A stretch of 64,000 nt of DNA from an uncultured Pseudokineococcus sp. (GTDB taxonomy: Bacteria; Actinomycetota; Actinomycetes; Actinomycetales; Quadrisphaeraceae): the NCBI RefSeq assembly GCF_947499845.1, contig NZ_CANMPM010000013.1, positions 1-64,000 on the forward strand, given 5' to 3'. Each line of letters opens with the position of its first letter. Positions within the stretch are counted from its first letter, which is position 1. The position numbers were made by a program, and so were the translations under genes. Shown piece after piece: positions 45,989-54,924 of the stretch. Below the pieces are notes generated by a model. It saw only the letters and a list, made by a program, of their open reading frames with translations, did no database searches and was not told the origin of the DNA.

Positions 45989-47062
45989 GTGACCTCCCTC
46001 TTCGAGCCCCTGCGGCTGCGCGACGTCGAGATCCCCAACCGCGTGTGGGTCTCGCCGATGTGCCAGTACTCCTGCGACCCGGTCGGCGCCCCCGGCGTCG
46101 TCCACGACTGGCACCTCGCGCACCTCGGCGCCTTCGCCGTCGGCGGCGCGGGCCTCGTGCTCACCGAGGCCGCCGCCGTCAGCCCGGAGGGCCGGATCTC
46201 GCCGGAGGACGCCGGCCTCTGGACCGACGAGCAGGCGCGCGCGTGGGCGCGGGTCGTCGACTTCGTCCACGCCCGCGGCTCCCGCGCCGGCGTCCAGCTC
46301 GCCCACGCCGGCCGCAAGGCGTCGACGTACCGGCCCTTCGAGGCCGCCGGCTCCGGCTCCGTCCCCGCCGCCGAGGGCGGGTGGTCGACGGTCGCGCCCA
46401 GCGCTGTGGCCTTCGGCGGCTTCGCCGAGCCGCAGGCCCTCGACGCCGAGGGGCTGCGCCGCGTCGTCGACGACTTCGCCGCCGCCACCCGCCGCGCCGA
46501 CGCCGCGGGCTTCGACGTCGTCGAGGTCCACGCCGCCCACGGCTACCTGCTCCACCAGTTCCTCTCGCCGCTCGCCAACCACCGCGAGGACGCCCACGGC
46601 GGAGACCTCGACGGCCGGGCCCGCCTCCTCCTCGAGGTCGTCGACGCCGTCCGCGCCGCGTGGCCGGCCGGCAAGCCCGTCCTCGTCCGCGTCTCCGGCA
46701 CCGACTGGGCCGAGGGCGGCCTCACCCCCGACGAGGTCGTCGAGGTGTCGGGGTGGCTGCGCGAGCACGGCGTCGACCTCGTCGACGTCTCCAGCGGCGG
46801 TCTCGTGCCGGGGGCGAGCATCCCCGTCGCCCCGGGCTACCAGGTGCCGCTCGCCGAGGCCGTCCGCCGCGGCGCCGGCGTCGCCACGGGCGCCGTCGGC
46901 CTGATCACCGACCCCGCCCAGGCCGCCCAGGTGGTGGCGCAGGGCCAGGCCGACGCCGTCCTCCTCGCCCGCGCGCTGCTCCGCGACCCCCGCTGGCCCC
47001 AGCGCGCCGCCCGCGAGCTCGGCGTCGAGCTGCCGCTGCCGCCGCAGTACGCCCGCGCCTGA
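45989..47062 (+). CDS. Old yellow enzyme family NADH:flavin oxidoreductase (YqjM-like)
   Basis: 357 residues with an FMN-binding TIM barrel. It has the YqjM-type N-terminus LFEPLRLRDVEIPNRVWVSPMCQY with a Cys beside the flavin, QLAHAGRKAS, the substrate-binding HAAHGYLLHQFLSPLANHRED (abridged; His-Ala-x-His) and GAVGLITDPAQA. It reduces activated C=C bonds with NAD(P)H. The GTG at 45989 fits the family start. It is 64 bp after xfp and may be co-transcribed. Confidence 0.94.
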   Translation: MTSLFEPLRLRDVEIPNRVWVSPMCQYSCDPVGAPGVVHDWHLAHLGAFAVGGAGLVLTEAAAVSPEGRISPEDAGLWTDEQARAWARVVDFVHARGSRAGVQLAHAGRKASTYRPFEAAGSGSVPAAEGGWSTVAPSAVAFGGFAEPQALDAEGLRRVVDDFAAATRRADAAGFDVVEVHAAHGYLLHQFLSPLANHREDAHGGDLDGRARLLLEVVDAVRAAWPAGKPVLVRVSGTDWAEGGLTPDEVVEVSGWLREHGVDLVDVSSGGLVPGASIPVAPGYQVPLAEAVRRGAGVATGAVGLITDPAQAAQVVAQGQADAVLLARALLRDPRWPQRAARELGVELPLPPQYARA

Positions 47063-47619
47063 CGGGGCACGGCCGCTCGCCCGGCCAGCGGCCCGCCCGG
47101 ATCGGTACAGGGCCAGCCCCGACGGCCGGCTGACCGGCGCGCGAGCGGGCGGGCGGGGGCGCGCGGAGAGCACGTCAGGCCGGCGCCCCGACCGCAGCGG
47201 CGCCCGGCCGGAGAGCGCCGAGCCAGTGCCGGAGCGCGGCCGCGCCCGTCCGCGGACCGGACCTGCGCCCGCTCGGACGGGCGGGGGCTCCGCAGGGTCG
47301 CGGGGGCGGCCACGCGCACGACGCCGGGCCCGCTCCGGCACTGGCTCGGCGCTCCTCGGTCGCCTCGGCGAGGGCTCGGGGCGCCGGCCTGACAGTGAGG
47401 ATGTGGGTGAGCCCCGCAATGGCCGGTCCTGACTCCCGGCCTGACCGGCACGGTTGCCTTCAACACGATCTGTCGGTCCGGCCCGCTGCGGGGCTCGTGC
47501 ACCCACCGACGAGGGTCGTGACCTCATAGGAGCTTGTGCCAGCAAGCACCCGTCACTGTCTTGTCCGCTCTTCGGCGGTGCGTGCCGTCCCGCGCCACCT
47601 ACCAGGAGAGAAGGACGAC
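47063..47619. other. 557-bp non-coding interval upstream of the IS110 transposase
   Basis: It contains a nested palindrome (47174-47393, listed separately) and then about 225 nt of apparently non-coding DNA before the transposase. The latter includes CATAGGAGC at 47525 and AAGGAC before the start codon. No host gene is seen. In IS110-family elements the non-coding end beside the transposase can encode a bridge RNA, so part of this interval may be element DNA. Confidence 0.5.
47174..47393. repeat. Large nested palindrome
   Basis: Outer arms GTCAGGCCGGCGCCCCGA (47174-47191) and its exact complement at 47376-47393 (18 bp) enclose inner arms at 47213-47236 and 47331-47354 (24 bp, perfect; begins GAGCGCCGAGCCAGTGCCGG). 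The unpaired segments between outer and inner arms are exactly 21 bp on both sides, so the whole forms one 63-bp-arm structure with a symmetric internal loop. The central 94 bp contains a further hairpin (CGCCCGTCCG with CGGACGGGCG). Confidence 0.9.
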
Positions 47620-48875
47620 GTGACCACCATCGCACCCGCCTGCCCGCAGACCCAGCCCGACCCGGGCCCCCGGCCCGCGAGGGTGCGCCGCGGTCGCCGC
47701 CAGGCGGTCGCCCCGGTCGCGGTCGCGCTACCGGCCGAACAGGTCATCGGCGGGGTCGACACCCACGCCGAGACCCACACCGCCGCGGCCGTCGACCTCG
47801 CAGGACGCACCCTGGGCCACGCCACCTTCCCCACCACCACAGCCGGGTACATCGCCCTGCTGCGGTGGTTGACCGGCTTCACCACCACCGGCTCCGCCGA
47901 TCACCTCACGACCGGGGTCGCCGGCGAGGACACCACCAGGGTCGTCCGGATCGGGGTCGAGGGCACCGGCACCTACGGCGCCGGCCTGGCCCGCTACCTG
48001 CGCGACGTCGCCGGCGTGGAGGTCGTCGAGGTCGACCGCCCCGACCGCAGGACCCGCCGCTTCGCGGGCAAGTCCGACCCCATCGACGCCGAGGCCGCCG
48101 CCCGTGCCGCCCTCAACGGCCACGCCGCCGGGACGCCGAAGCTGCGCACCGGACCCGTCGAGGCGATCCGGGCGCTGCGGGTGGCCCGCAGCAGCGCCGT
48201 CGGCGCCCGCGCGCAGGCGCTCGTGCAGATGAAGTCCCTGATCACCACCGCACCGCAAGCACTGCGCGAGCGGCTACGGGCCCTGTACACCGCACCCGCG
48301 AAGCTGGTCGCGACCTGCGCCGCGCTGGGCCCGGACCCGGTCGTGCTGGCCACCGGAGACCCCACCGCCGCCGCCGAGGCCAGCCTGCGCGCCCTGGCCC
48401 GACGCCACCAGCACCTGTCCGAGGAGATCACCGAGGCCGACGCCGTCCTCGACCAGCTGGTCGCCGCGACCGCCCCCACCCTGCTGGAGGCCCTCGGCGT
48501 CGGCACCGAGGTCGCCGGGCAGCTGCTGGTCACCGCCGGGGACAACCCCGAACGGCTGCACTCCGAAGCCGCGTTCGCCGCGTTGTGCGGGGTCAGCCCC
48601 GTGCCGGCGGGCTCAGGCCGGACCGACGGCGCGGTACGCCTCAACCGAGGCGGGGACCGCCAGGCCAACAGCGCACTGCACCGGGTAGTGATCACCCGGC
48701 TGCGCCACGACCAACGCACCCAGACCTACCTCCAACGGCGCACCGCGCAGGGCAAGCCGAAGAGGGCGATCCTGCGATGCCTCAAGCGCCACGTCGCCCG
48801 GGAGATCTACCGCCTGATCATGCTCGACCTGGCCCCCACCACAACGCCCCGAGCCACTTGACGGCCCATAGGAGC
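47525..48875 (+). mobile_element. IS110-family insertion sequence (minimal extent)
   Basis: A single transposase gene flanked by CATAGGAGC at 47525-47533 and 48867-48875. IS110-family elements lack long terminal inverted repeats and usually give no target duplication, so these direct repeats mark either the element ends or an end motif; the true left end could be further upstream, up to about 47394. No copy of the element is seen elsewhere in the window. Confidence 0.6.
47620..48861 (+). CDS. IS110-family transposase (DEDD/serine recombinase)
   Basis: 413 residues and apparently intact. The N-terminal RuvC-like DEDD domain has VIGGVDTHAETHTAA (Asp), IGVEGTGTYGAGLARYL (Glu) and FAGKSDPIDAEAAARA (Asp-Asp). 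A coiled-coil region is followed by the Tnp_2/transposase_20 domain with ALCGVSPVPAGSGRTDG, which carries the catalytic Ser, and LNRGGDRQANSALHR. Length and motifs are those of active IS110 recombinases, which use a bridge RNA to choose donor and target. The GTG at 47620 has GAAGGAC 5 nt upstream. Somewhat more A/T at third positions than neighbours agrees with transfer. Confidence 0.95.
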   Translation: MTTIAPACPQTQPDPGPRPARVRRGRRQAVAPVAVALPAEQVIGGVDTHAETHTAAAVDLAGRTLGHATFPTTTAGYIALLRWLTGFTTTGSADHLTTGVAGEDTTRVVRIGVEGTGTYGAGLARYLRDVAGVEVVEVDRPDRRTRRFAGKSDPIDAEAAARAALNGHAAGTPKLRTGPVEAIRALRVARSSAVGARAQALVQMKSLITTAPQALRERLRALYTAPAKLVATCAALGPDPVVLATGDPTAAAEASLRALARRHQHLSEEITEADAVLDQLVAATAPTLLEALGVGTEVAGQLLVTAGDNPERLHSEAAFAALCGVSPVPAGSGRTDGAVRLNRGGDRQANSALHRVVITRLRHDQRTQTYLQRRTAQGKPKRAILRCLKRHVAREIYRLIMLDLAPTTTPRAT

Positions 48876-48968
48876 ATCGTGCTCTCCGCGGACCCGCCGC
48901 TGCACGCTCGTGCAGGGCGTCACCTCTCCGCGGCAGCCGCCGTCCGGAGCCTCCCGCCCGTGGCTCCG

Positions 48969-49886
48969 TCAGGCGGGGGCGGCGCCGCCCGTGGCGAGGC
49001 GCTCGCGGTGGGCGGCGACGGCGTCGCGCAGCGCCGCGAGCACGTAGCCGGGCACCTCCATGCCCTTCTGGCCGGCCCAGAGGAGCTCGCGCTCGACGCG
49101 GGAGATGTCGCGCGCGAAGCCCTCGAGGTCGTCGCCGAGCCCGAGCGTCTGCACGACGCGGCCGTAGTCGGCCTCCTGGCCGGGGCGGTTGACGCCGACG
49201 AGGGCGAAGGAGCGACGGCGCAGCACCTGGGTGAGCCGCAGCTGCCAGGGGGCCAGCAGGCCGGCCTGGAGCATCTGCGTGGCGGCCAGCCGGTAGTAGG
49301 CGAAGTGGCCGGGCTCCTGCTGCTTGATGGGGGCGACGACGGTGCGCGCCGTCGCGGTCTCGCCCAGCCGCTCGAGCCCCTCGGACAGCCGGTTGTAGGC
49401 GAGGACGGCGGACCGCTCGGTCGCGGCGCCCGTCAGGTAGTAGAGGAGGCGCGCCACCTCCTGGACAGGGCGCAGGTGGGCGAGGGCGCCGAGGACGCGG
49501 ATCTTCGGGCTGACGACCGTCGTGTTCGGCTCGGCCGGCTCCATGCCGAGGTCCTGCTGCAGCCGGTCGAGGATGAGGCCGTGCTGGATCTCCTGCGGCT
49601 GCCAGACGTCGGCGAAGAAGAGGCGGTCGGTCTCGTCGACGTCGGGCAGGAGCGTGAGGAGCTCGAGGACGTTGCGGTCCACCTCGAGCTCCACGCGCGA
49701 CAGGTAGGAGATGACGGGCCCGAAGGCCTCGCGCACGGCCGAGGGGTCGTGCACGGTCCGGTCCACGCTGTCGAGCGGGATCGGGGGGTGCTTCTCGCCG
49801 AGCTGGAGGACGTGGTCCCGCAGCTGCTGCGGCGTGATCGTGGCGCGCGGCACGGTGCAGATCTTAAGGACCGTCGCGCGCGACAC
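48969..49886 (-). CDS. Ferritin-like diiron protein, acyl-ACP desaturase-related
   Basis: 305 residues. The helical protein carries ELEVDRNVLELL, then WQPQEIQHGLILDRL and later IKQQEPGHFAYYRLAA: two ExxH motifs plus an additional Glu, the ligand pattern of diiron four-helix bundles such as soluble acyl-ACP desaturases. Actinobacterial members are sometimes labelled as GTP-binding protein LepA, which the sequence does not support (no P-loop). The function is unknown; a redox role on lipids is plausible. The GTG at 49886 is supported by GGAAGG 7 nt upstream; GTG 49853 is an alternative. Confidence 0.78.
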   Translation of the reverse strand: MSRATVLKICTVPRATITPQQLRDHVLQLGEKHPPIPLDSVDRTVHDPSAVREAFGPVISYLSRVELEVDRNVLELLTLLPDVDETDRLFFADVWQPQEIQHGLILDRLQQDLGMEPAEPNTTVVSPKIRVLGALAHLRPVQEVARLLYYLTGAATERSAVLAYNRLSEGLERLGETATARTVVAPIKQQEPGHFAYYRLAATQMLQAGLLAPWQLRLTQVLRRRSFALVGVNRPGQEADYGRVVQTLGLGDDLEGFARDISRVERELLWAGQKGMEVPGYVLAALRDAVAAHRERLATGGAAPA

Positions 49887-54532: not shown

Positions 54533-54560
54533 CCCGCCCGGCGTCTCGCCCCGCCCCCTC

Positions 54561-54832
54561 GGGGCGATGTGTGGCCATGTCGTCCTGCTGCGCCCTCTCC
54601 GAGGGCGACGTGTGGCCATGTGGCCCTCCCGCCGGACCCTCCCGGGCGATGTGTGGCCATGTCGCCCTCCCGCCGTGCCCTGCCGGGGCGACGTGTGGCC
54701 ATGTCGTGCCTGCAGCGCGTCCCGAGCCCCTACGGCCCGATGTCGCCCCGCGGCGGGGCGATCCGAGGGCGACATGGCCACACGTCGCCCCGCGGGGGAG
54801 CGATTCGAGGGCGACATGGCCACACATCGCCC
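54561..54832. repeat. Six-copy GTGTGGCCATGT repeat cluster with strand inversion
   Basis: A motif of about 22 bp, GGGCGAYGTGTGGCCATGTC, occurs directly at 54561, 54604, 54643 and 54685, then inverted (GGCGACATGGCCACAC) at 54768 and 54810. A partial copy, GATGTCGCCCC, is near 54739. The core centres on the palindrome TGGCCA. The cluster fills the YqgE-DUF3039 interval (54533-54938), which has no supported gene although open frames run through it. Confidence 0.92.
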
Positions 54833-54924
54833 CTCGGGACGGTGGGCGACGGCGGCAGGGCCGCACGTCGACCGTGAGGGCGGCGCGGCCGTCGTCGCTG
54901 CCCGCCGCCGGGGGCGAGCCGACG

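What the first reader, a model, noticed from the sequence alone, without database searches (positions are those of the whole stretch)
47174..47393. About 220-bp nested palindrome with symmetric internal loop beside an IS110 element
Two perfect inverted-repeat pairs (18 bp outer, 24 bp inner) are separated by exactly 21 unpaired bases on each side, and the 94-bp centre folds further. Such exact symmetry suggests a selected structure: a structured RNA, a protein-binding cruciform, or a REP/attC-like palindrome. IS110-family elements are known to target palindromic repeats, and this lies about 130 bp from the transposase-side CATAGGAGC. It is explained by no coding gene.
Basis: partly seen in the sequence, partly recalled or inferred. 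Interest (0 to 1): 0.65.

Follow-up and report, generated by a model that had tools for sequence, protein, structure and literature searches.

The report
RNA-guided jumping gene inside dispersed hairpin
The odd nested palindrome is two back-to-back copies of a hairpin repeat found, so far, only in this bacterial genus, and a mobile element that appears to be guided by its own RNA has inserted into one of them, so it is a fresh example of a known targeting habit rather than a new kind of structure.

Summary
The palindrome is real and its reported geometry is exact. It is not one selected 220-bp structure but two inverted copies of a ~126-nt dispersed intergenic hairpin repeat. The repeat has 19 model hits in this genome and 15, 12 and 6 in the three other genomes of the genus; in 297 genomes of the order it was found in these 4 only. 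Its outer stem covaries strongly. The right-hand copy stops at 47393 and resumes at 48879; between them lies a ~1,485-bp IS110-group element. Joining the flanks gives a 26-mer present letter for letter in 4 of the genome's other 18 copies. The element's left end folds like a bridge RNA. Its left target guide (47437-47445) matches the repeat 9 of 9; over 22 related elements, own-target matches beat all 2,000 permutations. So: a new instance of IS110 targeting of REP/ERIC-like repeats, a known association. The repeat family matched no Rfam family and its function is open; I favour a structural role at gene 3' ends.

The parts
47137..47262 (+). Left copy of the dispersed hairpin repeat, complete
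   Evidence: covariance model R1, 88.8 bits, E 1.3e-15 for the genome
47333..47393 (-). Right copy of the repeat, part left of the insertion (core from GTCAGGCC inward)
   Evidence: R1 hit 47333-47398 on the minus strand, model 34-98, 45 bits; the last repeat letter is the C at 47393
48879..48915 (-). Right copy of the repeat, remainder beyond the insertion (begins GTGCTCTCCGCG); outer limit approximate
   Evidence: flanks joined give GGCGCCGGCCTGACGTGCTCTCCGCG, present exactly in 4 of the other 18 copies
47394..48878 (+). IS110-group insertion element, ~1,485 bp; one C (47393 or 48878) is shared between the two junctions
   Evidence: ends conserved in relatives (AGTGA.GATG left, TAGGAGCATC right) and interruption of the repeat
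47394..47590 (+). Left-end non-coding region, predicted bridge RNA with two stem-loop domains; 3' limit approximate
   Evidence: fold z -2.1 with 9 of 200 shuffles as good; consensus fold over 15 left ends, 14 of 31 pairs with two-sided changes
47437..47445 (+). Predicted left target guide CGGCCTGAC
   Evidence: 9 of 9 identical to the target left of the junction; permutation tests
47463..47469 (+). Predicted right target guide ACACGAT; CACG pairs with the target's CGTG, AT pairs with letters that the right end supplies
47525..47533 (+). CATAGGAGC, predicted left donor guide, copy of the right end 48867-48875
47553..47558 (+). TCACTG, predicted right donor guide, complementary to CAGTGA at 47393-47398
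47620..48861 (+). IS110 recombinase gene (413 aa from this GTG; an upstream in-frame GTG is at 47536)
   Evidence: PF01548 E 2.5e-18 and PF02371 E 1.3e-14; IS621 recombinase in the PDB, E 9.7e-6
48867..48878 (+). Right end of the IS, CATAGGAGCATC
   Evidence: conserved in relatives

Best explanation
The palindrome is an inverted pair of a genus-specific, ~126-nt intergenic hairpin repeat. A single IS110-group element has inserted inside the right-hand copy, at the edge of the repeat's nearly invariant internal loop (GGCCTGAC^GTGC). Shown by sequence: the repeat family, its structural covariation, the interruption, and the restored empty site. Inferred from established IS110 biology plus guide-target matching: the left end is transcribed as a bridge RNA whose first loop pairs with the repeat and whose second loop pairs with the element's own ends, and the recombinase then inserts the circular element there. 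Least certain: the repeat itself most likely acts as a structured element at gene 3' ends; for the IS it is a harmless address present in many copies.
For: Dispersed copies and genus restriction (4 of 297 genomes). Covariation 0.318 against 0.086 +/- 0.008 in shuffles, 17 of 18 outer-stem pairs with two-sided changes; 12 of 32 pairs on an alignment not fitted to the model. Empty-site 26-mer exact in 4 of the other 18 copies. Recombinase domains and IS621 relation. Left guide: 178 of 198 letters over 22 elements, permuted mean 132.5, maximum 148, 0 of 2,000; 16 elements after dropping near-duplicates: 129 against a maximum of 112, 0 of 5,000. Right guide, all 19 with a readable flank: 105 of 133, permuted mean 83.2, maximum 96, 0 of 5,000. 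Guide 12-mer CGGCCTGACGTG: 14 sites in the genome, 12 inside repeats, 1 for the reversed control. In congeners the same intergenic place holds a repeat and no IS of this kind was found there.
Against: One insertion only, so target preference cannot be counted within this genome. The left-end fold alone is modest (z -2.1). Relatives L021, L022 and L099 also have targets ending in CCTGAC, so part of the match is shared by kinship: the window's target scores 7.0 of 9 on average against other elements' left ends, maximum 8. 4 of 22 elements (L038, L040, L043, L052) have their best left match outside the usual place. The right guide is weak when only target letters are counted and near-duplicates dropped (61 of 78 with 1 of 5,000 permutations as high; over a wider range 65 of 78 with 6 of 5,000). 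The two junctions share one C, not the two-base core known from IS621. Neither RNA has been shown to be transcribed. The 3'-end role of the repeat rests on a crude gene caller.
Confidence: 0.87

Rival explanations
1. The IS landed in the repeat by chance or through the recombinase's own preference, without RNA guiding.
For: Single insertion in this genome; related elements target other sites with the same CCTGAC ending.
Against: The guide carries the repeat's own letters (CGGCCTGAC here, CCGCCTGAC in L021, matching each one's own target); permutation tests on both sides; 12 of 14 perfect sites for the 12-mer are in repeats.
Confidence: 0.06
2. The nested palindrome is itself a selected unit (cruciform, protein site or one long structured RNA), and the repeat match is secondary.
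For: The two copies pair with each other in the minimum-energy fold of the region; exact spacing.
Against: Other inverted pairs have the opposite orientation; in congeners the place holds one detected repeat, in G003 in the other orientation; covariation supports a stem within each copy.
Confidence: 0.03
3. About the repeat only: it is a non-autonomous mobile element (MITE or REP/ERIC kind) spread by a transposase, with no host function.
For: Many dispersed copies, tandem and inverted clusters, genus restriction, imperfect-palindrome shape.
Against: No Y1_Tnp (RAYT kind) in this genome (other transposase kinds not searched for). 8 of 13 repeat sites have a repeat-bearing locus with orthologous flanks in a congener, so many copies are old and kept. 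Compensatory changes in the stem suggest selection on pairing.
Confidence: 0.4
4. About the repeat only: it is a cis-acting RNA or DNA hairpin at gene 3' ends (transcript end, stability or a protein site) kept by selection.
For: 37 sites: none inside a gene, 22 tandem, 13 convergent, 1 divergent, 1 undetermined, against 15, 2 and 4 (tandem, convergent, divergent) for window gaps of at least 150 bp; covariation and nearly invariant internal loop.
Against: Counts come from a rough caller and cover 37 of 52 hits; window baseline is small; no transcript data; no T run seen after the stem in the copies read by eye.
Confidence: 0.45

Closest known systems
IS621 and the IS110 group with bridge RNA (PMC11208160 and PMC11208158; passages read)
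   Same: Recombinase family; non-coding RNA predicted upstream of the gene; two loops with target and donor guides in the same order; insertion in a repeated extragenic palindrome
   Different: Recombinase related only distantly (E 9.7e-6); junctions share one C rather than a CT core; the repeat is 126 nt and unrelated by name to E. coli REPs (sequences not compared)
ISPpu9, ISPpu10, ISPa11, ISRm19: IS110-family elements inserted in REPs (PMC1525189, abstract and passages; PMC11187229, passages)
   Same: IS110-family element sitting inside a dispersed extragenic palindrome
   Different: Those have several copies at REPs (4 to 7 of as many); here one copy. ISPa11 is used in PMC11187229 as an IS1111-type element with its RNA downstream of the gene; here it is upstream
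ERIC/IRU and similar intergenic repeats (PMC2229807, passages)
   Same: About 127 bp, intergenic, long stem loop, dispersed
   Different: Confined to one actinobacterial genus as far as searched; nearly invariant internal loop; terminal repeats with TA and target duplication not tested
REP elements with RAYT transposases (PMC2817692, search listing only)
   Same: Extragenic, palindromic, in inverted pairs
   Different: 19 hits rather than the >100 per genome given there; longer; no Y1_Tnp found in the genome

Membership tests
IS110 family, IS110 group | DEDD RuvC-like domain plus Transposase_20 domain | tested here: met
   PF01548 and PF02371 above their cut-offs
IS110 family, IS110 group | Catalytic DEDD residues and serine (D11, E60, D102, D105, S241 in IS621) | tested here: inconclusive
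   In the weak alignment an E (GTGTY region), two D (KSDPIDAE) and the S of SGR line up with IS621 letters; the first stretch alone is not significant (i-Evalue 66), and the first D lies outside it
IS110 family, IS110 group | Non-coding region with bridge RNA upstream of the gene | tested here: met
   Two-domain consensus fold over 15 left ends; prediction only
IS110 family, IS110 group | Guides matching both strands of target and both donor ends | tested here: met
   Left target guide; right target guide weaker; donor guides
IS110 family, IS110 group | Two-base core shared by both junctions | tested here: inconclusive
   One C shared (..GAC left..ATC right) here and in relatives
IS110 family, IS110 group | Circular intermediate, RNA expression | not testable with these tools
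   needs RNA or PCR
REP/BIME with RAYT | Y1 transposase of the RAYT kind in the genome | tested here: not met
   PF01797: 0 matches; control genomes ring in 5 of 14
REP/BIME with RAYT | High copy number (>100 per genome, listing) | tested here: not met
   19 model hits
ERIC/MITE-like repeat | ~100-200 bp, intergenic, long stem loop | tested here: met
ERIC/MITE-like repeat | Terminal inverted repeats with TA and target-site duplication | not tested
   no filled/empty site pair of the repeat was looked for
Known RNA family | Match to an Rfam 15 covariance model | tested here: not met
   46900-49100: one sub-threshold match, inside the recombinase gene
Integron attC site | R/L box pairs and an integron integrase nearby | not tested

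The most novel reading that the evidence does not exclude
The repeat is an undescribed structured RNA (or protein-binding hairpin) of one actinobacterial genus, kept at gene 3' ends across species. Its nearly invariant asymmetric internal loop (GUCA-GGCC / GAGCC-A) is a functional recognition motif, and the IS110 bridge RNA reads exactly that motif, so the target cannot easily escape by mutation.
Probability: 0.2. Interest if true: 0.55.

Novelty: new member of a known kind. Interest (0 to 1): 0.33.

Why it matters
It gives a clean, sequence-only case in which an IS110 insertion, its empty site, four predicted guides and the repeat family it reads can be laid side by side in an actinobacterium. 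It also supplies a genus-specific hairpin family with strong covariation that can be tested for a role at transcript ends. It does not change the known picture of IS110 targeting.

Tried and rejected
Rejected: a single selected cruciform (other pairs differ in orientation); a known Rfam RNA; a RAYT-driven REP; the IS beginning at CATAGGAGC 47525 (relatives and the interrupted repeat place the end at 47394).

Led nowhere or left open: paper searches for an earlier description of such a repeat gave nothing relevant; the organism's name is unknown to me, so 'Kineococcus' was a guess, and these two searches do not show that the repeat is undescribed. The scan of viral contigs with an 18-mer gave 3 contigs that I did not examine. 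The promoter/terminator scan was not run; the lack of a T run after the stem was read by eye.

Choices that affect counts: one search used 47 of the 80 relatives kept (255 were found); 24 of the 47 showed the left-end motif, and one search used 21 of these plus the window (L023, L030 and L039 left out: contig edge with L021's flank, no right end found, same flanks as L038). The right-guide test had the window's slice wrong by two bases (it still gave 122 against a maximum of 118). Its repeat, left out L038, L040, L043 and L052, and its search range was set; result 89 of 112 over 16 elements, maximum of permutations 83. Because that choice was biased I repeated it with all elements, with near-duplicates dropped, with a wider range and with target letters only; the signal stays but is weak in the strictest form. 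Gene-context counts cover 37 of 52 hits. The core-length count (15 of 16 cores of 60 nt, one of 62) comes from a pattern that misses diverged copies.

Full report
Observation. The palindrome is exactly as described: 18-bp outer arms (47174-47191/47376-47393), 24-bp inner arms (47213-47236/47331-47354), 21 nt between them on each side and a 94-nt centre. First-order Markov versions of the window never gave an arm above 17 bp within 400 bp in 40 trials.

What the arms are. Searching the window's own genome (3.72 Mb, 76 contigs) with 47100-48960 returned 51 matches, most of them to the stretch around 47121-47275 or to its reverse complement. 16 distinct cores were read out by pattern; 15 run 60 nt from GCAC to GTGC and one 62 nt. 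In the alignment of 15 copies two blocks are invariant or nearly so (GCAC-GTCAGGCC-GGCGCC and GCGCC-GAGCCA-GTGC) around a variable apical part. The symmetry therefore follows from homology.

The repeat family. A covariance model finds 19 hits in this genome and 15, 12 and 6 in the three other genomes of the genus, and none in the other 35 of 39 genomes searched at E <= 0.01. An order-wide scan found it in 4 of 297 genomes, 1 of 95 genera, at E <= 1e-4 with stricter filters. On an alignment of matches (63 rows, 44 distinct), 93.2% of pair cells are standard pairs and 17 of 18 outer-helix pairs show two-sided changes; the covariation score is 0.318 against 0.086 +/- 0.008 in shuffles (0 of 500) and 0.041-0.063 when partners are slid. 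That alignment was fitted to the structure, which favours it; on the unfitted alignment of 15 copies, 12 of 32 predicted pairs show two-sided changes. Inner helices hardly vary and so say little. No Rfam match in 46900-49100. Of 37 sites examined with a rough gene caller (of 52 hits) none lies inside a gene: 22 tandem, 13 convergent, 1 divergent, 1 undetermined; the window's own site counts as tandem only because of the IS gene. The same caller on the window gives 15 tandem, 2 convergent and 4 divergent for gaps of at least 150 bp. This hints at a place at gene ends and is no proof. Of 13 repeat places in this genome 8 have a repeat-bearing locus with orthologous flanks in a congener, among 19 congener loci held. 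The window's place, downstream of the flavin oxidoreductase gene, does so in all three; in G001 the contig ends shortly after the repeat, and in G003 the repeat is in the other orientation and the next gene differs.

The insertion. The right-hand copy breaks off after GGCCTGAC (47393) and continues with GTGCTCTCCGCG at 48879. The join, GGCGCCGGCCTGACGTGCTCTCCGCG, is found letter for letter in 4 of the other 18 copies: two on C19, one on C8, and the window's left copy. The 1,485 bp between carry an IS110-family recombinase (PF01548, PF02371; IS621 in the PDB at E 9.7e-6). It was found in 1 of 13 genomes of the family at E <= 1e-20, and its left end in 1 of 7 genomes. The closest relatives in public genomes are 54-61% identical (Geodermatophilaceae URHA0031 and an actinobacterial MAG). 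Relatives with recognisable ends begin AGTGA.GATG and end TAGGAGCATC or close to it. In three Streptomyces copies (two of one genome) the flanks join over one C into a reading frame that I recognise as A-D-K-G/A-Y of transposases (read by eye; the name is recalled). This agrees with a one-base overlap.

How it targets. IS110 elements encode a bridge RNA: the first loop pairs with the target, the second with the donor, the 5' side with the left and the 3' side with the right half (PMC11208160, passages). The left end here folds into two such domains (z -2.1, 9 of 200 shuffles as good), and 15 left ends share the fold, 14 of 31 pairs with two-sided changes. The first loop carries CGGCCTGAC (47437-47445), identical to the 9 nt left of the junction, and ACACGAT (47463-47469); of the latter CACG pairs with the target's CGTG and AT with letters supplied by the right end. 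The second loop carries CATAGGAGC (47525-47533), a copy of the right end, and TCACTG (47553-47558), complementary to the left end. Left guide over 22 elements: 178 of 198 letters, permuted mean 132.5, maximum 148, 0 of 2,000; 18 of 22 best matches lie at offset 37-45, L038, L040, L043 and L052 elsewhere. With 6 near-duplicates dropped: 129 of 144, maximum 112, 0 of 5,000. Right guide over 19 elements: 105 of 133, mean 83.2, maximum 96, 0 of 5,000; with target letters only and near-duplicates dropped 61 of 78, reached by 1 of 5,000, and over a wider range 65 of 78, reached by 6 of 5,000. In the genome CGGCCTGACGTG occurs 14 times, 12 inside repeats, against 1 for the reversed control.

Reading. 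Most likely the genus carries an old structured intergenic repeat, and an IS110 element arrived later and reads the repeat's internal loop, as IS621, ISPpu9, ISPpu10 and ISPa11 are reported to insert in REPs (PMC1525189, abstract and passages; PMC11187229, passages). The repeat's own role is open: ERIC repeats of like size are said to affect transcript stability (PMC2229807, passages), and a 3'-end role is my best guess, with a mobile origin as the main rival; no Y1 transposase was found. Not shown by any search: transcription of either RNA, recombination, the organism's name.

Noticed in passing
window 54560-54835: A second dispersed repeat family: units like GGGCGAYGTGTGGCCATGTCGYCC in direct and inverted copies, arms up to 26 bp, intergenic, 74 blastn matches in this genome including overlapping ones on both strands.
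   Followed up: partly
window 48969-49886 (-): 305-aa protein conserved in the genus (87%, 57% and 56% identity in G002, G001, G003) with no Pfam match at E <= 1.
   Followed up: no
G000 C7:163722 and C8:70613: The only two exact genomic sites for the guide 12-mer CGGCCTGACGTG that lie outside the repeats found.
   Followed up: no
L153, L154, L155: Three viral contigs hold the repeat's 18-mer GCACGTCAGGCCGGCGCC exactly.
   Followed up: no
L088, L090 (Streptomyces filamentosus) and L096 (S. hirsutus): Related IS110 elements sit at one and the same kind of site, in what reads as another transposase gene, with matching left guide (8 of 9).
   Followed up: no
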